Source of the DNA: a virus
DNA length: 43,050 bases
Virus record (IMG/VR): IMGVR_UViG_3300020169_000031
Location: 1 to 43,050 of that record
Strand: one strand, 5' to 3'
Shown piece by piece: positions 4,875-29,001 of this stretch. A program made the translations under genes and the position numbers. Numbering within the stretch: the first letter of the stretch is position 1; every line of letters begins with the position of its first letter. Below the pieces are notes generated by a model that worked only from the letters and a program-made list of their open reading frames with translations, did not search any database and was not told the origin of the DNA.

Positions 4875-5228
4875 CTACAAGTCAGGCATTTCTATTTCAA
4901 TAATGTCAAAAATAGATCCTAACTCTTCTTCTGAAAGAGAGAAACTTTGTCTCACTTTCTTTGTTTTTTCTTTTTCCTTGCGGATCTTTTTTTCACGGGT
5001 TTTGGAAAGGTTTCCGTTGTCTTTCTTGTATTCTTCAATCAGCTTCTCTAAGAGTGATGTTTGATTTACGAACTGGAGAATAACCCAACGAAGAAACTTT
5101 CCTTGGCCAATGCCTTCATACTTTAGTCTAATACGAAAATCAGCGTGGAGCTTTTCGCCAATAGAGAAAGTTAAGTTTTTATACTTTGGCTCATACTCTA
5201 CTATGTTTGGCTTTTGATCTTCGCTCAT
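4875..5228 (-). CDS. Small basic protein, possibly DNA-binding
   Basis: 117 residues. Residues 15-55 (KNLTFSIGEKLHADFRIRL then a helix with GQGKFLRWVILQFVN) resemble a strand followed by two helices, as in ribbon-helix-helix proteins. Residues 70-95 are a very basic helix (Lys/Arg/Glu) and the tail is acidic. The start overlaps the stop of the upstream IMPDH/GMPR family gene (ATGA-type overlap), so the two are translated together. The DNA-binding reading is a guess from the pattern. Confidence 0.7.
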   Translation of the reverse strand: MSEDQKPNIVEYEPKYKNLTFSIGEKLHADFRIRLKYEGIGQGKFLRWVILQFVNQTSLLEKLIEEYKKDNGNLSKTREKKIRKEKEKTKKVRQSFSLSEEELGSIFDIIEIEMPDL

Positions 5229-6247
5229 CGATGTAAGATGTGGGTGCTGGACTCAACTGCTGCGTTGTGGGACTGGCGAATGAATGTTGCTTTGCTTTGT
5301 AGCTCAACAATGTCTCTCGCTCCGGAATAGGAAAAGCCTGACCTCACACCAGTAAGTAGTTCTTCTACAACATTGTATACAGAGCCTTTACAAGGAATAG
5401 TGGTAGATACGCCTTCTAAGGACGAAGTTTTTCCACGCCAAGCTTTTTGTGCTTCGGCAGATGCCATACCACGATAAGCTTTAAAGCAGCGACCATCACG
5501 ATTGCGGAAAGTTTCACTGGGCGTTTCATCAGTTCCGGCCAATAACGAACCCAACATTACAGCATCAGCGCCAGCAGCCAAAGCTTTTACAATGTCACCA
5601 GAGTTTTTGATACCGCCGTCAGCAATAAGAATGGCGCTGCGATCTGTTTGAGCACAGTCAATAATAGACTGAAGGGTTGGAACGCCGTGGCCTGTTTGGA
5701 TACGGGTTGAGCAAATACTTCCTCCACCAATGCCTACACGAATAGAGTCAGCACCCCAATCGGCCAATCGGTTGAAGCCTTCAAGCGTCGCAACATTGCC
5801 GGCCATAATGTGAACGTTCATTCCAAGCTCTCTTCGCAAGGAATCAATAGCCTCGCTTACAAGAGAATGATCGCCGTGAGCAACATCAATACAAATAACT
5901 TTTGCTCCTGACGCATAACATTCAATGGCTCGCTCAATAAAGTCTCCACTCACACCAACTGCTGCTCCAACAACAGAACAGTTTGGTACATCCAAGGCGT
6001 CTTCTACCTCGGCTGCTTGTTCAGCGATTGTATTGTATCTATGAACAACAGCCATTCCTCCAAGCTTAGACATTGCTGCAGCCATTTCCCATTCACTTAC
6101 TGTGTCCATCGGAGAAGCAATAATGGGAATCTCTAGATTTAGTTCATAATCCAAAGGCGTTGCTAGTGAAATTTGTTTCCTTGATATAATGTCGGAGTAT
6201 TGTGGTTCCAACAAAACATCCCCAAATGTGATTGTTTGTTTATACAT
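5225..6247 (-). CDS. IMP dehydrogenase / GMP reductase family enzyme
   Basis: 340 residues. A TIM barrel with [13 protein letters not shown] near 44, the phosphate-binding [15 protein letters not shown] loop near 173 with the catalytic Cys, [11 protein letters not shown] near 209, [10 protein letters not shown] near 232 and YRGMAS near 259. There is no CBS domain pair, and the flap is short with no Arg-Tyr pair typical of IMP dehydrogenase, as in GMP reductase (about 345 residues). By contrast [13 protein letters not shown] and the tail VESSTH look more like IMP dehydrogenase. The enzyme either oxidises IMP to XMP or reduces GMP to IMP; both act at the IMP branch point, as does PurA at 8039-9079. 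The ATG overlaps the end of the upstream gene and follows GAGG. Confidence 0.9.
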
Positions 6248-7641: not shown

Positions 7642-8037
7642 TTATACCTCTGTTAGTTTGTATTTCTTTCCATCAATCTCGACAACCTTTGCGGAAAGTG
7701 TTTGGGCGCATGGGGTGCTGGGTGGCTTGGTTGGTGTGACTAGCCAGTGTTCATCTTCGGTCAGTTGTTGTCCATCTAAGAACCACATTTTGTCTCCGCT
7801 GGCCCTCTCAACAGCCGGGCCATCTTCACGGTGACGCTTTCCGTTTAGATACCATTCTTTGGTTCCGCTGGCATACTCAACAGCAGGACCATCTTCACGG
7901 TGAAGCTTGTCGTTTAGCCGCCATTCTTTGTATCCGTTGGCCCTCTCAACAGCAGGACCATCTTCACGGTGAAGCTTGCCGTTTAGGTACCACACTTTGC
8001 TTCCGTTGGACCATGCTTTTACTTTATATTCAATCAT
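7642..8037 (-). CDS. MORN-like tandem repeat protein
   Basis: 131 residues from the ATG at 8037, one base after the purA stop; a longer in-frame start at 8127 would lie inside purA. Residues 11-79 are three 23-residue repeats of the form NGxKxWYLNGKLHREDGPAVE, and a fourth degenerate copy runs to about 100. These resemble the short beta-hairpin repeats (MORN-like, W-x-x-N-G-K) found in many phage and giant-virus proteins. The C-terminus has KVVEIDGKKYKLTEV, a further hairpin. The likely role is binding a partner protein or surface; nothing in the sequence says which. Confidence 0.85.
   Translation of the reverse strand: MIEYKVKAWSNGSKVWYLNGKLHREDGPAVERANGYKEWRLNDKLHREDGPAVEYASGTKEWYLNGKRHREDGPAVERASGDKMWFLDGQQLTEDEHWLVTPTKPPSTPCAQTLSAKVVEIDGKKYKLTEV
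7801..8007 (-). repeat. Three tandem 69-bp coding repeats
   Basis: Three 69-bp units encode the 23-residue repeats; the stretch GACCATCTTCACGGTGA recurs on the plus strand at 69-base spacing near 7889 and 7958, and with one change near 7820. The DNA similarity suggests recent duplication or homogenisation. Confidence 0.85.
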
Positions 8038-8038
8038 T

Positions 8039-9079
8039 TTATGCTGCCTCCTGTGAAAGAATAGAATAGGGGTTGTCTGAGAAGTAAACTCGTGGAACGC
8101 CGCATTGTTCGGCAACGTTTGATACACGATGGCGGAAGTCGCTTTCCCACTCTTCGTCTCCCATTACCTCACGCATAACATCCATCTTGTTGATCACGAG
8201 GTCAGTTACACCATTCATTCTACACGATTTAGCGAGAAAGTCAAGATCAATCCAGTTTGTTTGGCGCTTTCTTCCTGTGGTTGCTCCAAACTCTTGGCCG
8301 GCCTCTTGTAGTTGTCCTAAAAGAGGATCGTCACCTTGGAAATTTTTTGCTCCAACATAAGTTTCATAAACCTTCGCAGCACCCCAAACACGGTTGATTG
8401 CTTGTGGTGGAATACCGTTCAGAAGCGCACCAGCCGTCGTACAGTGGCTTGATGTAACATAAGGGTAATCACCCCAGTCAATGTCAATACCAAAGCCTTG
8501 TGCGCCCTCACAGAGCACATAAGTGTTTTTGTCGCTATAAAACTCTTCGTAAAGATCAATAACCAAATCTTTCATAAAGGCCAGCTCACCTACAAAAGAG
8601 CATCCACCAGCATGTACGCCACTTCGACCATATTTATCACGATAAGCAGGACCACAACCTCTTCTAGTCGTTCCAATCTTTTCGTCTCTTTTATCTTCAT
8701 TTTTATGTTCCTTTGTAATAATGTGTGCGTTTTGAGCAATGCGAAGGTTTGATACAACATCAATACCAGCCGCCTCAAGATCTTTGATTTCTTGTAGGAG
8801 GGCATAGGGGTCAATAACGCATCCGTTGCCAATAATAGATTTGATCCCAAAGAACACTCCACTAGGAATGTGATGAGTTACAAGCTTTTGGCCTTCATGA
8901 TAGATTGTATGACCGGCATTTGGACCGCCGCCAAACCTCATAACGTGAGTGTAATTGCCGTTCTTACATAGATCGTGTGTAATTTTTCCCTTACCACAAT
9001 CACCATACTGAAGCCCAACAACAACATCTGCTGTGATTTCGCCGGCTGGCTTTACGCCGCCCATTGTTTCTCTATACAT
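8039..9079 (-). CDS. purA: Adenylosuccinate synthetase, short form
   Basis: 346 residues from the ATG at 9079, chosen because AAGGAG lies just before it; the frame is open further upstream but that part overlaps another gene. Motifs: VVGLQYGDCGKGK near 26 (P-loop, catalytic Asp in the place of E. coli Asp13), GGPNAGHT near 53 with the catalytic His, IPSGVFFGIKSIIGNG near 74, IGTTRRGCGPAY near 137, EGAQGFGIDIDWGDYPYVTSS near 205, GATTGRKRQ near 275 and the NKMD guanine motif near 305. It condenses IMP and Asp using GTP. It is about 85 residues shorter than the usual bacterial enzyme, the size of phage PurZ, but keeps the Asp that PurZ proteins replace. Confidence 0.92.
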   Translation of the reverse strand: MYRETMGGVKPAGEITADVVVGLQYGDCGKGKITHDLCKNGNYTHVMRFGGGPNAGHTIYHEGQKLVTHHIPSGVFFGIKSIIGNGCVIDPYALLQEIKDLEAAGIDVVSNLRIAQNAHIITKEHKNEDKRDEKIGTTRRGCGPAYRDKYGRSGVHAGGCSFVGELAFMKDLVIDLYEEFYSDKNTYVLCEGAQGFGIDIDWGDYPYVTSSHCTTAGALLNGIPPQAINRVWGAAKVYETYVGAKNFQGDDPLLGQLQEAGQEFGATTGRKRQTNWIDLDFLAKSCRMNGVTDLVINKMDVMREVMGDEEWESDFRHRVSNVAEQCGVPRVYFSDNPYSILSQEAA

Positions 9080-9125
9080 TCTCACTCCTTTTATTTCTTT
9101 TACGTTTTGGTAAGTATTTTTCATG

Positions 9126-9590
9126 TTAATAAGGGCCGTTCGGTTCTCCAACATCCTCCATCCAATGGCCGCACGCCCTTGCCCAATCATCTTGCAAGGA
9201 AATTGTGTTTTCGGCGGCCTCTCTGAACCCGTCGTCAGCGTGAACTCTATGCCAATGTTTTTTCTGCGGGTCCCACCAGAAGCCATGTTCTTTAAGCGCC
9301 TGGACCACGAGATCTCCCGGCCAATTGACAAAGGAAATATAGTCTCGCTTGTGTCTAGTGCCTGGTACGAGCCTGGTTTTAAAGTTGATGGTATTGCGTT
9401 CGCTAACTGGAATAAATCCCATTTTGCTAATAACGTCAAGCATGGAATGGTGGTGCTTCTTTGTTCTACCTTTCTCCTTTTTAGCGGAGAGTTCATTTTT
9501 TTCGTCACAGCAGGGATTGGGGCATGATCGCCATCCGAACACCCCCGGATCAGCAAGGCATTCCCCGTCCCAATAATCATTAAGATACAT
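9126..9590 (-). CDS. Unknown protein with Cys and Trp-rich motifs
   Basis: 154 residues; the start is supported by AAAGGAGAAAAGAAA directly before the ATG. The N-terminal half has FGWRSCPNPCCDE, a cluster of three Cys that could bind a metal, followed by a basic KKEKGRTKKHHH run. The C-terminal half has ALKEHGFWWDPQKKHWHR, a pattern seen in small phage proteins (helix, then a W-D-x-x-x-K-x-W hairpin), then a helix ending WMEDVGEPNGPY. I do not recognise the family. It sits directly before purA. Confidence 0.75.
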   Translation of the reverse strand: MYLNDYWDGECLADPGVFGWRSCPNPCCDEKNELSAKKEKGRTKKHHHSMLDVISKMGFIPVSERNTINFKTRLVPGTRHKRDYISFVNWPGDLVVQALKEHGFWWDPQKKHWHRVHADDGFREAAENTISLQDDWARACGHWMEDVGEPNGPY

Positions 9591-9603
9591 TTTCTTTTCT
9601 CCT

Positions 9604-9861
9604 TTATTCTGTAAGTCCGAGTCGGTTGTATTTTTTTAGGACTTTTTCGATAACGTATTCGTGCGCAGGCTCTGAAGAGAATGCGACAACCAAGTCTATC
9701 CAATCCACAACCTCTCCCTCGGCGTTGGCATAGAATGCCGCCGTTTCGTACGAAGCGACGACCTTGTCTGAGAAGGATGTTTGGATATACACACCATCAG
9801 GCATTTGCCATAACTTTCTATTGCTGTCAATGTCTTTTATAAACCTTGCGTTAGTTTTCAC
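9604..9861 (-). CDS. Small hypothetical protein
   Basis: 85 residues. It starts with GTG at 9861 in a GTGA overlap with the stop of the preceding gene, so translation depends on that gene. The sequence has a strand-rich N-terminus (LWQMPDGVYIQTSFSDKVVA) and a helical C-terminus (HEYVIEKVLKKYNRLGL). No recognised motif. Confidence 0.65.
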   Translation of the reverse strand: MKTNARFIKDIDSNRKLWQMPDGVYIQTSFSDKVVASYETAAFYANAEGEVVDWIDLVVAFSSEPAHEYVIEKVLKKYNRLGLTE

Positions 9862-10374: not shown

Positions 10375-10410
10375 ACGCCTCCGAGCGTTGTTTTTCCACG
10401 ATAGAGCCGT

Positions 10411-10440
10411 ATTATACCACGGTTCAGGGCCGGATGTCAA
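10411..10440 (-). promoter_or_regulatory. Sigma70-type promoter
   Basis: Minus-strand TTGACA (10440-10435) and TATAAT (10416-10411) with an 18-base spacer. It lies between the genes ending at 10483 and starting at 10374 and would drive the operon from the small barrel protein through purA, dut and onward. Confidence 0.85.
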
Positions 10441-10482
10441 GCATTCCGTGCCCGCCGTGGGGTTGAATATAATACTAGTGGT

Positions 10483-10848: not shown

Positions 10849-13800
10849 TCAGGAAAGCAACTTGAAGCGATGTTTGATTGAGCGAGTTGAAAAGCCCCAG
10901 TTGTCGCAATAGTCAAGCTTTGCTGCGTAGGGTCTGTTTAGATGAACAACATCATTCTTTTGGACAGCCCAGCACTTGATTGCGATCATCTCACTGTTGC
11001 TGTCTGTAACATCAACAATCCAGTATGTTTTTCCTTTCTTTGTCTTGCGCTCAGTTACTTTGCGAGGAATGAACCAGCAAACCAAAAGCTCAGGATCGAA
11101 CTCAGAGATAGGGGGCACACCTTGATGGTGAAGATCTTGGAGCAAGTTATCATCAACAACTAGCGACATTGGGAACACCCCGGTCAGATCTGAGAGATAC
11201 TCAATCCTTTCAACATCTGAGAAGTCCTTTTCGGGAGCATACTCTTTGATGTTCTCGGCTAGTTTATCGTGTGACTTTTGGATCTTCTTATAGATCTTTG
11301 GCCGATCGACACACACAGCAGACCAAAAGTGTTTCAGTCCTGTAAACCTTTCATCGACCAAAGAGTTTAGAGCCTGAGCCCGACAAAGAACATCGAGCGC
11401 TTTCTTGTTTAGCTTGGAGTATGAAATCTCTTCTGAAAAGATAAGGTCTTCTACTTTGTGAAATGGGCGATGAGCCATAATTTCATTGATAGCAGCGTCA
11501 CCCAACCCCTTGATAGAAGATAGTGGCTGATAAAGAGTTTGACCATCTTGAGAGATTTCCCAGCAACGACCGGAAGAGTTGATGCTGATCTTCTCTACAT
11601 TAAATCCTGCTCCTTTCGCTGTCGCAATCGCTGCTTCCTTTTTCGCATCCGGTTCGTTATCCAAAAACGCAGCGGTCCATTCGGATGGAAAATACTTATA
11701 AAGCCAAGCGCACTGATAGCTAATAACAGAATAACAAACAGCGTGAGACTTGTTAAAGCCGTAGCCAGAGAAGTACTCAAACTTTCTCCAAAGCTCTTCG
11801 CCGCCCTTATAACCCTTTTCATAACAGCCCTCCAAGAACTTTTGTTTAATGTCTGCTTTCTCCTTCATCTTCTTTTCAGAGAGGCCCTTCTTTGTAAGCA
11901 ACTTTCTAAGCTTGTTTCCATCATCAAGAGTAAGGCCCTTTCCAAGTTCAGCAGCCAACTGAGCAATCTGCTCCTGGAAAATCATAAAGCCGTATGTTGG
12001 CTCCAAGATCGTGCGAATGATTGGATGGTCGTACTTGATGTACTGAGGGCTTTCCTTTGCTGCGATATAATCTTTATCAACACCAGCCGAAAGAGGCCCA
12101 GGTCGATAAATGGAAGTCACGGCGGAAAGATCAATAATGGACTCTACTTTTGAGTTTGAGCAAAGCTTTTGTGCTCCTTCATTGGCGAATTGGAAGATGC
12201 CGGCCCACTTTCCTGCTTGGAAAATGTCATTGTATACTTCTGCATCGTCTAGATCGATCTTGTCCGGATGAAGGTTTTTATCATAAAAGTCTCGGATCTG
12301 ATCGAACGTTGGCTCTTCAATGCCGTGATGCCTACGAAGAATGTGATAGATCGCACCTTCCATAATGGCTAGTGTTGTTAGGCCAAGAACATCAAACTTG
12401 ATAAAGCCAAGTGGCTCCAAGTGGCGAACGTTTTGTCCTTCTGACCACGGGGTTTGTACAACTCCACCAGATGCGATAAGGGGCATCCACTTCTTTAGAT
12501 CGTCTCCAACAACAACACCACCGGCGTGCCTAGAAAGAGAACGGACTTGTCCTAATAAAGCACTAAGGCGCTCACCAACTTCAGGATACTTTGCTAGGAA
12601 ACTCTGTAAGCTTTCGGAATAGAGAACTGTTTCTTCATAAGTTGGTACATACATACCGGCAGTCATACCGTGCGCTGCCTTTGCTAGTGGCGTGGCTTCC
12701 TTGATCATAACAGAAGTTACTTTGTTGACCTCTGTGAAGGGAATACCATAGAACTTTGAGACATCTTTGATTAGAGATCTTAGTTTGAGAGTGTTGAAGT
12801 TTGAGATTGGTACAACCGAATCCTCACCCCATTCTTTTGCCAACACTTCTTTGATCTCCATACTGCGTGAGACATCAAAGTCAATATCCGGATAGTCTGT
12901 TGCGTCTTTCGTCATAAAACGAGAGAACAAAAGCCCGTGCTTGATTGGATCGATCTGTGTAATCTTTAGCACATAAGCCAAAAGAGAGCCTGCTGCTGAA
13001 CCACGACCTGGGCCTGAAAGCATCATCTCGTTGGCTCTATCAGCAATTGCCTTCATTGTAAGAAAGTATTTTGCAAAACCTCGCTCTTTGATTACTTCTA
13101 TCTCTTCACGGATCCTGGCAACATACTCGTCATTATCAGCGAGGCCAAACTCTGTCATTCCTTCAATCGCTAGTTTCACCAACTGGCTATCAGCTGTTTC
13201 ACTTTCCGGCACAACAAAGTCAGGAAGGCGAACTTCAGCATCCGGCTCAAAGTCAGAAATCAGTTCGTGTGTGATCCAGTGAGTTCTTTCAATACTACCA
13301 CGGACTAGATCATCATCGTAAGTTTCTCCAACTTCAGCAGAATAGTCTTTGTATGCCTGCCACATCTGATCGCCATTCTTAGGATACAGCTCATACCCAA
13401 CTTCCTCTAAGGTTTCAGGGATGCTGATCTCATAGTCTGGATTGGACTTTCTGTTCATCCAACCCAAGTTCCTGTAAAGCAAGCGGTCCTTCCAAAGCTC
13501 TGGGCTGGGATAGTGTGCATCCGCAGTTGATACAAGCTCAATGTTTAGTTCTTGAGCCACAGCAATAATAATCTTGTTTAGTCTGTGCTGCTCTGGGATA
13601 GAGTTCCACTGTAGTTCTAGAAAGAATCGCTCTCCAAAGATCTCAAGCATTTCTTTGGATTGGCTTACCGCTTCTGCGATGATCTCCTCATCAGATTGAT
13701 CTAACATCTGCCACATAATCTTAGCAATGTATCCGCCAAGACAAGCAGAAGTTACAATAACCCCTTCGGAGTGCTCACGAAGAAGATCGTAATCCATTCT

Positions 13801-14292
13801 GGGATATCGATAATAGTTGTCCCCTTGGTGTGACTTAGAGACAAGCGAGAAAAGATTGTTTAGACCGGTCTGGTTCTGCGCCAAGAGCACAAGGTGACGT
13901 CGGTGATTGATTGGAGAGTTTCTTGAACGAGTCGATCCCTCATCCTCAATAGACATTCCTTCAGCCTTGGCCAGCTTCTTTGCTTGCTTCTTGTCTTCTT
14001 CGATACGAAGCTTTTCTTCTTTCCAATCTTTGATCGAAGGATGGAAGTAAGCCTCAACCCCATACACGGCCTTAAACTCTTTTCCTTCGTTCTTCATCTT
14101 CTTCCAATGAAGGTATTGATGAGAAAAGCCGTTCATGTTTCCATGATCGGTTAGAGCAACAGCATCACACCCATTGTTGTAGCTGAAGTCCATGTGCTCA
14201 TCCGGATAGCCTAGAGCGTCAAAAGGAGATCCAACACAAGAGTGCCCATGTAAGTTTACAAATTTAAGTTTTGATTCAGTTCTTTCTTTCAT
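10849..14292 (-). CDS. dnaE: DNA polymerase III alpha subunit (family C, DnaE type)
   Basis: 1147 residues, full length for DnaE. The N-terminal PHP domain begins FVNLHGHSCVGSPFDALGYP and continues with VALTDHGNMNG. The polymerase palm has SGPGRGSAAGSLLAYVL near 430 and DYPDIDFDVSRS near 464, where two of the catalytic Asp sit (PDIDFD). Further on are GGVVVGDD, the fingers segment EPTYGFMIFQEQIAQ and the YGFNKSHAVCYSVISYQCAWLK-type region near 865. The C-terminal 90 residues hold an OB-fold (KGKTYWIVDVTDSNSEMIAIKCW). This is the replicative polymerase type of bacteria and is unusual in a T4-like phage, where family B is typical. A second, family A polymerase is at 29859-31043. Confidence 0.97.
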   Translation of the reverse strand: MKERTESKLKFVNLHGHSCVGSPFDALGYPDEHMDFSYNNGCDAVALTDHGNMNGFSHQYLHWKKMKNEGKEFKAVYGVEAYFHPSIKDWKEEKLRIEEDKKQAKKLAKAEGMSIEDEGSTRSRNSPINHRRHLVLLAQNQTGLNNLFSLVSKSHQGDNYYRYPRMDYDLLREHSEGVIVTSACLGGYIAKIMWQMLDQSDEEIIAEAVSQSKEMLEIFGERFFLELQWNSIPEQHRLNKIIIAVAQELNIELVSTADAHYPSPELWKDRLLYRNLGWMNRKSNPDYEISIPETLEEVGYELYPKNGDQMWQAYKDYSAEVGETYDDDLVRGSIERTHWITHELISDFEPDAEVRLPDFVVPESETADSQLVKLAIEGMTEFGLADNDEYVARIREEIEVIKERGFAKYFLTMKAIADRANEMMLSGPGRGSAAGSLLAYVLKITQIDPIKHGLLFSRFMTKDATDYPDIDFDVSRSMEIKEVLAKEWGEDSVVPISNFNTLKLRSLIKDVSKFYGIPFTEVNKVTSVMIKEATPLAKAAHGMTAGMYVPTYEETVLYSESLQSFLAKYPEVGERLSALLGQVRSLSRHAGGVVVGDDLKKWMPLIASGGVVQTPWSEGQNVRHLEPLGFIKFDVLGLTTLAIMEGAIYHILRRHHGIEEPTFDQIRDFYDKNLHPDKIDLDDAEVYNDIFQAGKWAGIFQFANEGAQKLCSNSKVESIIDLSAVTSIYRPGPLSAGVDKDYIAAKESPQYIKYDHPIIRTILEPTYGFMIFQEQIAQLAAELGKGLTLDDGNKLRKLLTKKGLSEKKMKEKADIKQKFLEGCYEKGYKGGEELWRKFEYFSGYGFNKSHAVCYSVISYQCAWLYKYFPSEWTAAFLDNEPDAKKEAAIATAKGAGFNVEKISINSSGRCWEISQDGQTLYQPLSSIKGLGDAAINEIMAHRPFHKVEDLIFSEEISYSKLNKKALDVLCRAQALNSLVDERFTGLKHFWSAVCVDRPKIYKKIQKSHDKLAENIKEYAPEKDFSDVERIEYLSDLTGVFPMSLVVDDNLLQDLHHQGVPPISEFDPELLVCWFIPRKVTERKTKKGKTYWIVDVTDSNSEMIAIKCWAVQKNDVVHLNRPYAAKLDYCDNWGFSTRSIKHRFKLLS

Positions 14293-14303: not shown

Positions 14304-14543
14304 TTATGTAATTTCGCCAGACACGAGAGTTTTCTTAATCTCTGTGATTGGGGCTCTCGACAAGGCAAAATAAAGCTTCATTTCTTCATCTTCTGCCAAG
14401 TCTTGTTTAAGTTCTTTAATCAAAACAGAAATCAGTTTGTTTAGATTCTTCTTTCTTTCTGTCTTCTTTCTTGGTGCGTCCATCATCTTTCGAAGTGTAT
14501 TCAAGCTTGATTCACGCACCGTTCTATCATTTAGTTCTGCCAT
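14304..14543 (-). CDS. Small helical protein before dnaE
   Basis: 79 residues from the ATG at 14543, preceded by GGAGGAGTG. Almost all helical, basic in the middle (PRKKTERKKNLNKLI) and acidic later (LAEDEEMKLYF). It lies 12 bases before dnaE and after the tRNA gene. A role with the polymerase is possible from position alone. Confidence 0.65.
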   Translation of the reverse strand: MAELNDRTVRESSLNTLRKMMDAPRKKTERKKNLNKLISVLIKELKQDLAEDEEMKLYFALSRAPITEIKKTLVSGEIT

Positions 14544-14560
14544 CACTCCTCCTTATCTAA

Positions 14561-14632
14561 AGCCGCCGATCGGATTTGAACCGATAGCCTACGCATTACA
14601 AGTGCGTTGCTCTGCCGTTGAGCTACGGCGGC
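14561..14632 (-). tRNA. tRNA-Thr (anticodon UGU)
   Basis: The minus strand gives a full cloverleaf of 72 bases: acceptor GCCGCCG paired with CGGCGGC, D arm TAGCTC...GAGCA, anticodon stem ACGCA/TGCGT around the loop CTTGTAA (anticodon TGT, reading ACA and other Thr codons), and T arm ATCGG-TTCAAAT-CCGAT. The CCA end is not encoded. It lies between dnaE's leader gene and a copy of the DnaA-box repeat. A single tRNA here is likely to help translation of phage codons that the host reads poorly. Confidence 0.96.
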
Positions 14633-14648
14633 GTTCCGGGTCCATCTA

Positions 14649-14698
14649 TTAGACGAACGAGCCGAGGATCTTATCCACACTCACGTGCGTTTTTTCGG
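14649..14698 (+). repeat. DnaA-box repeat, copy A
   Basis: About 50 bases starting TTAGACGAACGAGCC and containing the consensus DnaA box TTATCCACA at 14671-14679, ending in a T run. Forty-seven bases are identical to copy B at 16271. Strand is given for the DnaA box. It lies between the methyltransferase stop and the tRNA. Confidence 0.9.
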
Positions 14699-14699
14699 A

Positions 14700-15665
14700 C
14701 TACTGGCTGCATAGCTCATTTTTCCTCTTTGTTTGTTGTGGTTCTAAACTTTCTAGAAAAACTTCTTTTGCTTTTTCGTTGACGTCGATTACCATATATT
14801 GTCGACCCAAGTTTAAAGCGGCTCGGGCAGTTGTGCCTGACCCTCCAAAGGGGTCTAGCACGCTGTCTCCCTCATTGCTGTAAAGATAGATAATCCTTTC
14901 TAATAGTTTAACGGGCTTTTGTGTTGGATAGTCTAGTTTCTCATTGCCTTGTATTTGAGGAATGTCTAACCACAAGTCTTTTATTGGGATCCCGTCCATC
15001 TCATCCAAGTATCTTTTGATTCTAGGTATACCCTTAGCATTGTAAACCAACCTTTCATTATGATGAAGGTGTTTCATTTTCTCTTCTAACACATACCACT
15101 GCTTATGATGCCCATTCCAAGAATATCTCAAATTCTTTCTCGGGTTTACATCTGGTTGTGAATTATGTATTGCTGTCGTAACGAACCAACGTCCTGTTTT
15201 TTCACATCTCTTTGCGGATGACCTTTTCTTGTATTTTTCATCATACGGAAGATATAGGGGATTATAAATAGATTTTTTAGATTTCGAATAAACGATTATT
15301 GTATCGTGATATCTTCCTAGTTGCTTTTTGTTTTTTGCATTTCCGCCACTTTTCCAGGCTATTTCGTTTCGGAATAGTTTCTGACCAAAAACATCATCCA
15401 GAACAAGACGAACATAGTGGCTGTTTTTTGGTTCTACGTGAACAATAATGTTGCCATCTTTCTTTAAGATCCTGTGGCATTCTTTGATTCTTGGCGCTAA
15501 AAACCCCTGTGCATACTCTGCCATAGATCCAAACTTGTCATCAAACTCTCCAAAGTTCCTACCGGTATTGTAAGGAGGATCTAGATAGACCATACTAATA
15601 CTTTCTTCTTCTAGCCCCTTCATCGCTTCTAGGCAATCTCCTACAAAAAAACTATTTTCTTTCAT
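14700..15665 (-). CDS. DNA methyltransferase, beta class (DPPY)
   Basis: 321 residues. Catalytic motif IV YLDPPYNTG is near residue 28 and precedes the AdoMet motif DPFGGSGTT near 271, the order of beta-class amino-methyltransferases (N6-adenine or N4-cytosine, as in type II enzymes and type III Mod). VGDCLEAMKGLEEESI at the N-terminus is motif III-like, and a variable region between 130 and 240 would recognise the target. It overlaps the nuclease-like gene by 14 bases, and the two genes lie between identical 47-bp repeats. The pair looks like a restriction-modification cassette. Confidence 0.93.
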   Translation of the reverse strand: MKENSFFVGDCLEAMKGLEEESISMVYLDPPYNTGRNFGEFDDKFGSMAEYAQGFLAPRIKECHRILKKDGNIIVHVEPKNSHYVRLVLDDVFGQKLFRNEIAWKSGGNAKNKKQLGRYHDTIIVYSKSKKSIYNPLYLPYDEKYKKRSSAKRCEKTGRWFVTTAIHNSQPDVNPRKNLRYSWNGHHKQWYVLEEKMKHLHHNERLVYNAKGIPRIKRYLDEMDGIPIKDLWLDIPQIQGNEKLDYPTQKPVKLLERIIYLYSNEGDSVLDPFGGSGTTARAALNLGRQYMVIDVNEKAKEVFLESLEPQQTKRKNELCSQ

Positions 15666-16230
15666 TCTGCTTCTCCCGTTCTAACTCTTCTAGAACCTCT
15701 TTAGCTTTCCCGATATAATCTTTATAAACTTTCTTCGGAACACTTCTCTTCAAGAAGCCAGGGTGTTTTGGGTCTTCTAGTGCTTTAGCTGGAATCGCTA
15801 ATATCTCTGCATTTTCAGGATCTTCATAATTACCATGGGGGCGAGTGAACACAAATACATCTGCCTCATCAACACCATAGGCTACATGCCCACTAGCGGA
15901 AGCTGACCCTGTGTTTTTCTTGCTGATCCTTCTGGTGCACTCTAAGTGAAGTGTGCTGGAGCGAAATTTACTTTGAATTCTTAATTTATTTAAAGAAAGT
16001 AGATCATACCCTGACCGGTTCTTATCATTGTCGTTTCCTAGAGTCTCTGCAGTAACATGTAAGCTTGTATTAAAATTAATCCAATCTCTTTGAAAATATT
16101 CATTAGCTTGTGCTAGAAACTTCCCTAGTTCTCTTGTGTCGTTCTCTTTTAGCATCCCTTTATAAGCTTCATCAACATAGGACGTCCAGTTCTCCTTGAT
16201 TCTCTCTTTTTGATTATTTGTCAATGACAC
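15652..16230 (-). CDS. Candidate restriction endonuclease partner of the methyltransferase
   Basis: 192 residues from a GTG at 16230 with AAAGGAGAGAAA before it; no ATG is suitably placed. SGYDLLSLNKLRIQSKFRSS near residue 90 resembles the core of PD-(D/E)XK restriction enzymes: an Asp, then a strand ending in Q-x-K (Gln replacing the usual Glu, as in several restriction enzymes), followed by LHLECTRR. EADVFVFTRP then gives another core strand. The rest is helical and charged. The pairing with an overlapping methyltransferase gene supports the reading; the exact specificity cannot be read from sequence. It could instead be another DNA-binding partner. Confidence 0.55.
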   Translation of the reverse strand: MSLTNNQKERIKENWTSYVDEAYKGMLKENDTRELGKFLAQANEYFQRDWINFNTSLHVTAETLGNDNDKNRSGYDLLSLNKLRIQSKFRSSTLHLECTRRISKKNTGSASASGHVAYGVDEADVFVFTRPHGNYEDPENAEILAIPAKALEDPKHPGFLKRSVPKKVYKDYIGKAKEVLEELEREKQNERK

Positions 16231-16270
16231 TTTCTCTCCTTTGGTTTGGGCGCTAAGGCCGGTGTATTTG

Positions 16271-16320
16271 TTAGACGAACGAGCCGAGGATCTTATCCAC
16301 ACTCACGTGCGTTTTTTTCG
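16271..16320 (+). repeat. DnaA-box repeat, copy B
   Basis: Identical over 47 bases to copy A and in the same orientation, with TTATCCACA at 16293-16301. It lies in the leader of the nuclease-methyltransferase pair. Confidence 0.9.
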
Positions 16321-16384
16321 ATTGGCCGGTGTCGGCGGGGCGGTGGGTAAGCTAGTGAGCCACCAGAATCGGCGGGCTCATCTA

Positions 16385-16432
16385 TTAGACGAACGAGCCG
16401 AGGATCTTATCCACATTTATTTACGTTTTTTC
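16385..16432 (+). repeat. DnaA-box repeat, copy C
   Basis: Same orientation as copies A and B and identical for the first 31 bases through the DnaA box (16407-16415), then diverging before an ACGTTTTTTC end. It is 114 bases from copy B; the 64 bases between them are GC-rich and hold no gene that I can see. Confidence 0.85.
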
Positions 16433-16445
16433 ACGCCAGAGCCGT

Positions 16446-16474
16446 ATTGTACCACGGCCAGGGTCAGAAGTCAA
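16446..16474 (-). promoter_or_regulatory. Sigma70-type promoter
   Basis: Minus-strand TTGACT (16474-16469) and TACAAT (16451-16446) with a 17-base spacer. Its -35 lies over the stop of the split methyltransferase gene. It would transcribe through repeats C and B into the nuclease-methyltransferase pair. Its context (AGAGCCGTATT-TACCACGG) closely matches the promoter at 10411, so one may be a copy of the other. Confidence 0.8.
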
Positions 16475-17357
16475 GCGTTCCGAGGACATCGTTCTGCTGG
16501 GCGTAATACAGATACAAAGCATTGTCATCGATAAATTCTTTCCAAAAGTCTTTTCGAAACAAAGCGATAACTCTATGGTTGTATGTAACTTTTAAACCAC
16601 CAACATCACAAAACTTCATTAGCTCAACAAACTTCTTGCTTTGCATTGCTTGTTTGACCAGTGGTAGTGCTAATTCTTTATCAATAATTGCTCTACCATC
16701 TTCGCAAAGGCCGTATTCTCCTTTGGCGTCGACAAGAACATTGGCGCCTCGTTTACCGAAGATAACTTTCTTTTCCCCAAAGTGGCCTTTCTTGCGCTTC
16801 GACCACCATAATGATAGTTTATCTTCTTTGGCAACGTTTATTATACAAGGGTAAACAAACGTTGATGTCTTTTCTTTGTTCATCCATTCACGCTGACTGT
16901 GGTAAGATGAATCATATATCATTTCTACAGTATCTTGCTGCTCGGTGGCTACTAGTTTGAAGATCTCCTCAAACTTACCACTGGGAATGAAATCTAAGTT
17001 TGATATATCGTAGGTATATACCTTGTTGTTTTGATCTTTGATCAGTGTCTCGCCGCCGGCTTCTTTGTTTTGGAGGACATACCAGTCATATCTTGTCTGA
17101 ACGTCGAAAGTTGCGATGCCGGCCTTTACATCGTTGATATCTAAATATAAAAACTTTCTTTCTAACATCTTGTTGGCTAGTTTTTTCCATCGTCCTCCAT
17201 AGTTGCGCCAACCAGCCGGATGGACTAAGCAAAGATAAGCTTCTTTATTTAGGAGATCTAATGTTCTATCAACAAACTTATCCCAGATCTTTTTTGAGGT
17301 TTTGTTCTCGGCTTTCTTTTCTTGATAAGGTGGATTTCCAACTATAACGTCAAACAT
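16464..17357 (-). CDS. C-terminal part of a split NPPY DNA methyltransferase
   Basis: 297 residues from an ATG at 17357 that overlaps the stop of the preceding gene (ATGTTTGA). It opens at once with FDVIVGNPPYQEKK, catalytic motif IV of N6-adenine methyltransferases, followed by LCLVHPAGWRN and a long target-recognition-like region. AdoMet motif I is missing here but present in the upstream gene (17350-17730) in another frame, so the two together make one normal enzyme of about 423 residues. Either they act as two subunits or this is one frameshifted gene. No nuclease domain is visible. Confidence 0.85.
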   Translation of the reverse strand: MFDVIVGNPPYQEKKAENKTSKKIWDKFVDRTLDLLNKEAYLCLVHPAGWRNYGGRWKKLANKMLERKFLYLDINDVKAGIATFDVQTRYDWYVLQNKEAGGETLIKDQNNKVYTYDISNLDFIPSGKFEEIFKLVATEQQDTVEMIYDSSYHSQREWMNKEKTSTFVYPCIINVAKEDKLSLWWSKRKKGHFGEKKVIFGKRGANVLVDAKGEYGLCEDGRAIIDKELALPLVKQAMQSKKFVELMKFCDVGGLKVTYNHRVIALFRKDFWKEFIDDNALYLYYAQQNDVLGTLDF

Positions 17358-17730
17358 TGAAAAACTCAACAAAATCATCAATCTCTAAGAAATTGCCTTG
17401 TCGAATGTTTCTGTCTACAATCTCCCTAGCCGCCTCATCATCAACGTTTAGACCTGCTGCTAAGATTGCTCGCCACTTCATTTTTATAACGTTGTCTTCC
17501 ATTAGTTCGACTGCGTATGTGGTTTGTAGTGCTTTGTGCGGATCGTGGCCTCGTGACACTTTCTCTTTGATAATAGCCTCTACAAAGTTTCCGTCGCCTC
17601 CTGCTGGCTCTAAGAATGTTTTATCTGGTTCCCAAGCATCTTCTGGAAGCTTGCCTAACATTTCTTTTACTAGCCAGTCAGGTGTGAAGACCTCTCCGTT
17701 CTTTTTTATTCGATCTTCTGTCTTGATCAT
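17350..17730 (-). CDS. N-terminal part of a split NPPY DNA methyltransferase
   Basis: 126 residues. KNGEVFTPDWLVKEML near 10 and KTFLEPAGGDGNFVEAII near 39 are the N-terminal helix and AdoMet-binding motif I of N6-adenine methyltransferases, and TTYAVELMEDNV near 70 is motif II. The frame ends at IDDFVEFFNV just where the sequence should continue into FDVIVGNPPY; that motif is found in the +1 frame immediately after. A run of five T in GAGTTTTTC at the junction is a likely site of a one-base change or of ribosomal slippage. The start overlaps the stop of the upstream gene (TAATG). Confidence 0.85.
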   Translation of the reverse strand: MIKTEDRIKKNGEVFTPDWLVKEMLGKLPEDAWEPDKTFLEPAGGDGNFVEAIIKEKVSRGHDPHKALQTTYAVELMEDNVIKMKWRAILAAGLNVDDEAAREIVDRNIRQGNFLEIDDFVEFFNV

Positions 17731-28887: not shown

Positions 28888-28933
28888 GCACTCGTTTCTC
28901 ATCGGTCAGACGCCCTTGAGCGCCTCACATTAG

Positions 28934-28975
28934 TTAGACGATCGAGCGCCGGATCTTATCCACGTAAAAACGAAA
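28934..28975 (+). repeat. DnaA-box repeat, copy D
   Basis: Shares TTAGACGA-CGAGC and GGATCTTATCCAC with copies A-C, with several substitutions; the DnaA box is TTATCCACG (28956-28964), one mismatch from consensus. Same orientation as the others, 47 bases upstream of the promoter that drives the SSB operon. A further degenerate TCAGACGCC...GAGCGCC is seen at 28906-28924. Confidence 0.75.
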
Positions 28976-29001
28976 AAATGTCCGGCGGCGATCGTGGTGC
29001 C

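What the first reader, a model, noticed from the sequence alone, without database searches (positions are those of the whole stretch)
14649..16320. Nuclease-like gene and methyltransferase flanked by 47-bp exact direct repeats
Two overlapping genes, a beta-class DNA methyltransferase (14700-15665) and a gene with a QxK-type restriction nuclease core (15652-16230), lie exactly between repeat copies A and B, which are identical over 47 bases and in the same orientation. The repeats begin 2 bases past the methyltransferase stop and about 41 bases before the nuclease start. This is the structure expected if a restriction-modification cassette were gained, lost or swapped by recombination between the repeats. 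The repeat and gene layout is seen directly; the nuclease role and mobility are inferred.
Basis: partly seen in the sequence, partly recalled or inferred. Interest (0 to 1): 0.78.

Follow-up and report, generated by a model that had tools for sequence, protein, structure and literature searches.

The report
Swappable restriction cassette in a phage
A virus of bacteria carries a DNA-cutting and DNA-protecting gene pair lying between copies of a repeated signal that looks like the virus's own gene-start switch; a close relative has one copy of the signal and no pair, which suggests how viruses swap such weapons.

Summary
The repeats and gene pair are real. The window is a fragment of a large phage. 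A near-identical 154.9-kb record has 19 copies, between genes or at gene ends. The element (GGATAA-N15-CGTCTAA) resembles ECF-sigma promoters, and the phage encodes an ECF-like sigma factor. So the repeats are most likely phage promoters, not cassette ends.

A relative (95-98% identical flanks) has one repeat and no cassette: left side like C, right side like A.

The nuclease has no family match, but two predicted models give a PD-(D/E)xK fold (I-Ssp6803I, Hjc, NhoI/PvuII). E44, D76, Q86 and K88 are invariant in 13 of 13 distinct homologues. It lies just upstream of its methyltransferase in 19 of 20 subfamily loci, in at least three genomic settings. This is most likely a mobile type II restriction-modification pair. 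Other methyltransferase genes occupy the slot beside DNA polymerase III alpha in relatives. Promoter use, enzyme activity and direction of exchange are untested.

The parts
15652..16230 (-). PD-(D/E)xK (QxK-type) endonuclease-like gene, 192 aa, GTG start
   Evidence: models and fold searches; E44, D76, Q86, K88 invariant in 13 of 13 distinct full-length homologues, window's own included
14700..15665 (-). beta-class DNA methyltransferase (N6_N4_Mtase), 321 aa; DPPY before FGGSGTT
   Evidence: Pfam PF01555 4.9e-50; PADLOC MTase_II 1.4e-56
14640..14696 (-). element copy A (promoter-like), upstream of tRNA-Thr
16262..16319 (-). element copy B, upstream of the nuclease gene
28926..28981 (-). fourth element copy, upstream of the SSB-like gene
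16446..16474 (-). sigma-70-type promoter-like site TTGACT-N17-TACAAT upstream of C; also present at the empty site
   Evidence: 3 sites found in the region against 4.4 expected by shuffling, so weak on its own
14561..14632 (-). tRNA-Thr (tgt) downstream of copy A
14697..16432 (.). about 1.74 kb segment (C + B + gene pair) absent from the single-copy relative
10849..14292 (-). DNA polymerase III alpha, conserved flank of the slot
16464..17381 (-). C-terminal part (GNPPY) of an Eco57I-type methyltransferase, conserved flank on the other side

Best explanation
The segment is a mobile type II restriction-modification cassette of a large phage. A PD-(D/E)xK endonuclease and a beta-class methyltransferase lie in one transcription direction with overlapping ends. 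The 47-bp repeats are copies of a promoter that the phage uses at many genes, probably read by host RNA polymerase carrying the phage's own ECF-like sigma factor (inferred). Copy B would drive the cassette and copy A the tRNA-Thr and polymerase genes. Because the element is scattered through the genome in the same orientation as the genes, units that start with it can be added, lost or replaced by homologous recombination between copies without breaking a gene and with a promoter ready made. SHOWN: filled and empty alleles with matching junctions, dispersed element, conserved gene pair, predicted fold and invariant residues. INFERRED: promoter activity, sigma-element pairing, recombination as the route, cleavage of unmethylated competitor or host DNA with self-protection by methylation.
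For: Empty site: one element; left of its core it follows C for about 70 bases with one change and not A, right of it it follows A for 108 bases with two private changes and leaves C after 24; blastn blocks around it 94.8-98.3% identical. A second filled/empty pair: record G005 has element, tRNA-Leu, tRNA-Lys, HNH-like gene, element, tRNA remnant where G001 has one minus-strand element and tRNA-Lys (HNH and remnant named by eye). 7 of 18 hand-listed ends of similarity blocks between G001 and G005 lie within 50 bp of an element, against 11% of positions (33 of 20000 simulations). Element: 19 copies in G001 and in the near-identical G002, 11 in G005. 1 of 19 lies in a same-strand open frame of 100 codons or more against 82.7% of random stretches (partly built in, as the element holds stops). 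A start codon with Shine-Dalgarno follows within 160 nt in 16 of 19 against 39.6% of random positions. Phage sigma factor: Sigma70_r2 in 3 of 3 long records, two of them near-identical; best solved relatives sigma-H and sigma-E over residues 50-226. Meningococcal sigma-E -10 CGTCTAAH (PMC2893595, passages); a promoter listed for S. meliloti RpoE4 has GGAATAA and CGTC 15 nt apart (PMC6180224, passages), the element GGATAA and CGTC 15 nt apart. Nuclease pair.
Against: No transcription start or enzyme activity is measured. Foldseek E-values for the nuclease are weak (best 6e-3), and the models rest on 6 sequences (pLDDT 73 and 77); the NhoI/Eco15I Z values (about 7.5) are in the range that models without a clear match reach by the tool's own note. 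The meningococcal sigma-E spacer is 12-13 nt, unlike the 15 here, and the -35-like box differs from the usual GGAAC. Pfam Sigma70_r4_2 is not found in the phage records. A crude ORF caller put 6 of 19 elements wholly inside ORFs; I judged these over-extended starts or antisense frames. One of 19 copies (G001 91357) has no recognised gene downstream. Part of the core's conservation is built in by the search pattern. Block ends favour gaps between genes in any phage, so one search is confounded. None of 20 other cassette loci, some duplicates, carries the element, so the element is not needed for the cassette to move. Mantel support for co-inheritance of the pair is moderate (r 0.45, 56 of 5000 permutations).
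Confidence: 0.62

Rival explanations
1. The nuclease is a homing-type endonuclease: it cuts co-infecting sibling phages that lack the cassette or its methylation, and repair across the flanking elements copies the cassette into them. The methyltransferase marks the owner.
For: Best structural match in both models is the PD-(D/E)xK homing endonuclease I-Ssp6803I (Z 11.8 and 10.9). Filled and empty alleles exist.
Against: No group I intron reached threshold in the window; the gene is paired with a methyltransferase in 19 of 20 loci, which homing endonucleases usually are not (recalled). I-Ssp6803I shares its fold with many restriction enzymes and resolvases.
Confidence: 0.14
2. The repeat is not a promoter but another phage-wide site (replication initiation through the DnaA-box-like TTATCCACA, RNA processing, or a site for a dedicated recombinase).
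For: Complement contains TTATCCACA (DnaA box, recalled). Some copies lie downstream of, or a little upstream of, sigma-70-like promoters (seen by eye).
Against: Two conserved blocks with ECF-like spacing and a CGTCTAA box; 18 of 19 copies read towards a same-strand gene or tRNA; no constant RNA structure in the four window copies.
Confidence: 0.17
3. The single-copy allele in L013 is an assembly collapse between repeats, so presence/absence is not real.
For: Metagenome contigs often break or collapse at repeats (recalled); L004 ends 31 bases from its element core.
Against: The single copy carries two bases (AC for GG) found in none of A, B or C, and its flanks differ from the window by 2-5%, so it is a distinct allele; C and A are only 88% alike.
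Confidence: 0.05
4. The gene pair no longer restricts; it is kept for methylation (protection from the host) or is decaying.
For: Lone methyltransferases are the commoner state in phages (PMC4176335, passages); L123 has a relative of the methyltransferase without the nuclease directly upstream.
Against: Nuclease frame intact and the putative catalytic residues invariant in 13 of 13 distinct homologues.
Confidence: 0.1

Closest known systems
Type II restriction-modification systems with PD-(D/E)xK nucleases (PvuII, NhoI, Eco15I)
   Same: Nuclease plus separate methyltransferase in adjacent overlapping genes; PvuII/NhoI-like fold; E...D...QxK residues
   Different: Window nuclease has no Pfam, PHROGs, NCBIfam or PADLOC match and only noise among solved sequences; one homologue, L058, has a weak PADLOC match to a methyl-directed restriction enzyme over its D...QxK core (E 0.0073). 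NhoI and Eco15I were solved with methylated target DNA (entry titles), whereas this nuclease travels with a methyltransferase. Carried by a phage
I-Ssp6803I homing endonuclease
   Same: Best structural alignment of both models (Z 11.8 and 10.9)
   Different: No intron seen; paired with a methyltransferase
PeSL promoter/stem-loop cassettes of T4-type phages (Arbiol 2010, Comeau 2014; titles seen in a reference list, papers not held, content recalled)
   Same: Scattered promoter-bearing repeats between genes, proposed to let gene modules shuffle
   Different: Polymerase is Pol III alpha, not T4-type; ECF-like rather than sigma-70 early promoter; no terminator-like stem-loop around copies A-C, although one copy elsewhere follows a terminator-like hairpin (last sequence)
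Phage sigma-factor promoters of phiEco32-like phage 7-11 (PMC4331800, passages)
   Same: Well-conserved promoter repeats between genes, read by a phage-encoded sigma factor
   Different: ECF-like motif and more copies here, and a link to gene gain and loss

Membership tests
Type II restriction-modification system | DNA methyltransferase with catalytic motifs | tested here: met
   PF01555 4.9e-50; DPPY and FGGSGTT
Type II restriction-modification system | Endonuclease with a restriction-type catalytic core | tested here: met
   E44, D76, Q86, K88 in 13 of 13 distinct homologues; fold matches (E-values weak)
Type II restriction-modification system | Nuclease and methyltransferase inherited as a pair | tested here: met
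   19 of 20 subfamily loci: strict motif search 14 of 20; the other 5 (L108 truncated, L109, L119, L120, L121) from the ORFs printed, three of them confirmed in the alignment; L123 lacks it; 0 of 27 control methyltransferases (27 of the 58 more distant loci)
Type II restriction-modification system | Cleaves unmethylated sites, methylation protects | not testable with these tools
   needs enzymes
ECF-sigma promoter | -10 CGTC/TCTAA box at ECF-like spacing from an upstream box | tested here: met
   CGTCTAA in 25 of 25 aligned copies (CG partly set by the search pattern, TCTAA not), spacer 15; compared with passages
ECF-sigma promoter | -35 box of GGAA type | tested here: inconclusive
   GGATAA resembles GGAATAA of an RpoE4 promoter but not the commoner GGAAC
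ECF-sigma promoter | Transcription starts there with the cognate sigma | not testable with these tools
   no RNA data
ECF sigma factor (phage protein) | Sigma region 2 | tested here: met
   PF04542 9.2e-11, phrog_1740 7.3e-8
ECF sigma factor (phage protein) | Sigma region 4 | tested here: inconclusive
   Sigma70_r4_2 absent, but sigma-E and sigma-H align over both regions, residues 50-226
PeSL cassette of T4-type phages | Promoter plus stem-loop | tested here: not met
   no terminator-like site in 14500-16700; element alone folds no better than shuffles at A, B and the 28.9-kb copy (z -1.3, 0.0, 0.8), C z -2.4
PeSL cassette of T4-type phages | T4-type phage | tested here: not met
   polymerase is Pol III alpha
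Intron-borne homing endonuclease | Gene within an intron or intein at its target | tested here: not met
   no intron family above threshold in the window; site lies between genes

The most novel reading that the evidence does not exclude
In this phage group the promoters of a phage ECF-type sigma factor double as docking sites for weapons: restriction-modification cassettes and other units move into and out of the genome by recombination between promoter copies, and the cassette's nuclease drives its own spread by cutting unmethylated co-infecting relatives, a restriction-modification pair that behaves as a homing element.
Probability: 0.14. Interest if true: 0.85.

Novelty: new variant of a known kind. 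Interest (0 to 1): 0.6.

Why it matters
Complete restriction-modification systems were found only nine times in 831 phage genomes (PMC4176335, passages read), and how phages gain them is unclear. Here filled and empty alleles of one slot, a named exchange sequence and a candidate regulator (the phage sigma factor) make the route testable. It also adds an unassigned nuclease family that travels with its methyltransferase, and a slot beside the phage polymerase gene where other methyltransferase genes, some with nuclease-like partners, are found in relatives.

Tried and rejected
Repeats as ends of an insertion sequence or att sites: rejected because the same element occurs 19 times through the genome, mostly at gene starts. 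Repeat as a coding motif (it reads VDKILGSFV-stop in one frame): rejected by eye, as the variation is not codon-like and the frame is not kept upstream. Repeat as a tRNA fragment or structured RNA: ARAGORN and Rfam find only tRNA-Thr above threshold, and a possible CUC/GAG pairing is not kept across copies (by eye). T7-like RNA polymerase promoter: PF00940 search found nothing in 8 records, but its controls were silent too, so it decides nothing. Element in plasmid and phage collections: only short partial matches, best E 7e-3 (34 bases at 88% in two Phaeobacter plasmids, inside a gene), not followed up. Nuclease: no match in phages or plasmids; two scans of bacterial genomes found no relative. 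The 40S ribosomal protein matches (E 0.28 and above) are taken as noise. Host not identified. Literature searches (listings only) showed no description of such a cassette in the held library, which lacks most subscription journals.

Rows dropped: one search lists 27 stretches; alignment A1 uses 25 (L004 lacks upstream sequence, L018 is a chance match). Copies were first found with a pattern that fixes GTGGATAAGATC and CTCG-N-TCG, so those positions look more invariant than they may be; the model search then added copies that differ in CTCG. One search used 20 of 21 subfamily loci (L104 duplicates L103) and 27 of 58 more distant ones as controls; one search used 13 (also without L108 truncated, L111, L116-L118, L120 duplicates, and L123). 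One search used 18 block ends copied by hand, leaving out a tandem gene array and the outermost ends.

Full report
OBSERVATION. The two genes and the repeats are as described. Repeats A and B match over 47 of 47 bases. Two more copies lie in the window: C at 16375-16432, 114 bp beyond B, and one at 28926-28981. The window is a virus record of 43,050 bases. Stretches fetched from two longer records, 3300020165_000008 (154,885 bases, G001) and 3300020595_000009 (168,882, G002), are 99.99-100% identical to it. Its genes include tail sheath, tail tube, baseplate hub, Pol III alpha, UvsX, DnaB, RNR and GroEL relatives, as in a myovirus-like phage. No isolate is close: the polymerase is under 60% identical in all 1356 phage records that match.

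THE EMPTY SITE. Searching with the polymerase and with the Eco57I-type methyltransferase brought up IMGVR_UViG_3300031972_002613. There the Eco57I gene and tRNA-Thr are separated by one element only. blastn matches the window up to the end of C and again from the start of A, the two matches sharing the single element. Base by base, left of the core it follows C for about 70 bases with one change and departs from A within a few bases; right of the core it follows A for all 108 bases compared except two private changes, and departs from C after 24. Contig 3300030376_006982 also carries A and tRNA-Thr but has other sequence just before the element, where the contig ends; this hints at a third allele but may be an assembly edge.

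WHAT THE REPEAT IS. A pattern scan and a 60-column sequence model built from 25 copies show a dispersed element: 19 copies in G001 and 19 in G002, 11 in G005, 4 in the window, at least 1 in each of 15 of 15 records, which were chosen because they held one. It was not found in 31 other loci of polymerase, Eco57I-type and methyltransferase relatives or in 20 cassette loci, some of them duplicates. Of the 19 copies of G001, 18 read towards a same-strand gene or tRNA; the exception, at 91357, has no recognised gene. One divergent pair (87.3-87.6 kb) stands between divergent genes; a second (91.2-91.4 kb) has no recognised gene on its plus side. Two copies stand before tRNA genes. 16 of 19 have a start codon with Shine-Dalgarno within 160 nt (random positions 39.6%). 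Some copies overlap the end of the gene before them (86244). A crude ORF caller put 6 of 19 wholly inside ORFs, judged over-extended starts or antisense frames. The consensus has two blocks, GTGGATAAGATCC and TCGTCTAACTAATG, nine bases apart, with CTCG in between mostly kept, in part by the search pattern. Read as GGATAA-N15-CGTCTAA it resembles ECF-sigma promoters: the meningococcal sigma-E -10 is CGTCTAAH, though with a 12-13 nt spacer (PMC2893595, passages), and a promoter listed for S. meliloti RpoE4 has GGAATAA and CGTC 15 nt apart as here (PMC6180224, passages; spacing counted). The phage encodes a 383-aa protein with Sigma70 region 2, found in 3 of 3 records tested, two of them near-identical. 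The best solved relatives are sigma-H and sigma-E, E about 1e-6 over residues 50-226. Sigma70_r4_2 did not ring. That this sigma reads this element is inference from motif class and co-occurrence.

THE GENE PAIR. The methyltransferase is beta-class (PF01555; motif order). The window nuclease matches no family; one homologue has a weak PADLOC match to a methyl-directed restriction enzyme over its core (E 0.0073). A scan with the methyltransferase alignment kept 79 loci of 379 relatives; 21 form a subfamily at 48% identity or more, the other 58 lie at 25-39%. In 19 of 20 examined, a nuclease homologue directly precedes the methyltransferase, mostly overlapping; in 27 of the more distant loci, none. 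E44, D76, Q86, K88, R90 and T99-R100-R101 are invariant in 13 of 13 distinct full-length sequences. AlphaFold models of the window protein and of a homologue (pLDDT 72.9 and 77.2) find NhoI, Eco15I, PvuII and EcoRV at or near the top of Foldseek, with E not below 6e-3. VIA-align puts I-Ssp6803I first (Z 11.8 and 10.9), then Hjc resolvases (about 9), with NhoI/Eco15I near 7.5, a level the tool warns may be common. All are PD-(D/E)xK nucleases (recalled). The fold alone does not decide between restriction and homing; the conserved methyltransferase partner favours restriction.

MOBILITY BEYOND THIS SITE. In relatives sharing core genes the pair sits elsewhere: between Pol III alpha and the dehydrogenase gene (L105; L107 and L108 also have the dehydrogenase 1.1-1.4 kb downstream), or after the exonuclease and UvsX genes (L106). 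L123 has the methyltransferase without the nuclease, just before Pol III alpha. Conversely, among seven polymerase relatives of 72% identity or more with over 300 bases upstream, five have a methyltransferase gene within 2.3 kb upstream: L013 Eco57I-type, L014 and L019 D12, L016 N6_N4 (partial), L017 type II-like; L018 and L020 do not, L020 holding only 441 bases. L014 and L017 also have small proteins with a D...ExK motif seen by eye, without family match above cut-off. A second element-bounded difference: G005 carries tRNA-Leu, tRNA-Lys and an HNH-like gene (named by eye) between two elements where G001 has one minus-strand element and tRNA-Lys. Block ends between the two records are enriched at elements (7 of 18 within 50 bp, 33 of 20000 simulations), with the caveat that indels favour intergenic DNA.

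MECHANISM. Most likely, homologous recombination between promoter copies brings in or removes units that begin with the same promoter. The cassette becomes expressed at once, and genes on both sides stay intact. The enzyme pair would cut incoming or host DNA that lacks its methylation. Steps shown: alleles, element, pair, predicted fold. Steps inferred: promoter use, recombination route, activity, purpose. Whether L013 lost or the window gained the cassette is open.

KNOWN AND NEW. Phage restriction-modification systems, phage sigma promoters and promoter-linked module shuffling (PeSL; recalled, papers not held) are each known. The combination, the ECF-like promoter family with its sigma, the unassigned nuclease family and the polymerase-side slot were not seen in the listings of searches; that library is partial, and I read only passages of the papers cited.

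Noticed in passing
window 16464-17381 and 17350-17730 (-): Eco57I-type methyltransferase split in two overlapping frames (motif I half, then GNPPY half, sharing ATGTTTGA); the same sequence stands in the long record (L001). Split enzyme or frameshift not resolved.
   Followed up: partly
window 5225-6247, 8039-9703 (-): Dehydrogenase (phrog_9582) and a relative of phrog_1211 (2-aminooxy adenylosuccinate synthetase): the phage might make base Z; not tested.
   Followed up: no
window 10390-10448 and 16425-16482: A sigma-70-like promoter stretch repeated at 83% over 59 bases; in L015 a block of other small genes ends at this promoter.
   Followed up: partly
L015:2790-3620: GIY-YIG-like gene (named by eye) interrupting the polymerase III alpha coding region in a relative.
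   Followed up: no
L087 (G005 about 72,375-73,375): Element followed by only a 3' tRNA remnant, next to an HNH-like gene and two tRNAs.
   Followed up: partly
L089:688-1839 (-): The phage sigma protein is 383 aa, longer than the roughly 190-220 aa ECF sigmas it matches best in the PDB, with extensions of unknown role.
   Followed up: no
L086:5308-7124 (-), G001 101,307-103,123: Tandem array of five ORFs of 120 aa with repeated sequence; similar stretches elsewhere in these records.
   Followed up: no
window 7789-8009: Three tandem copies at 69-base spacing, in a stretch held by open reading frames.
   Followed up: no
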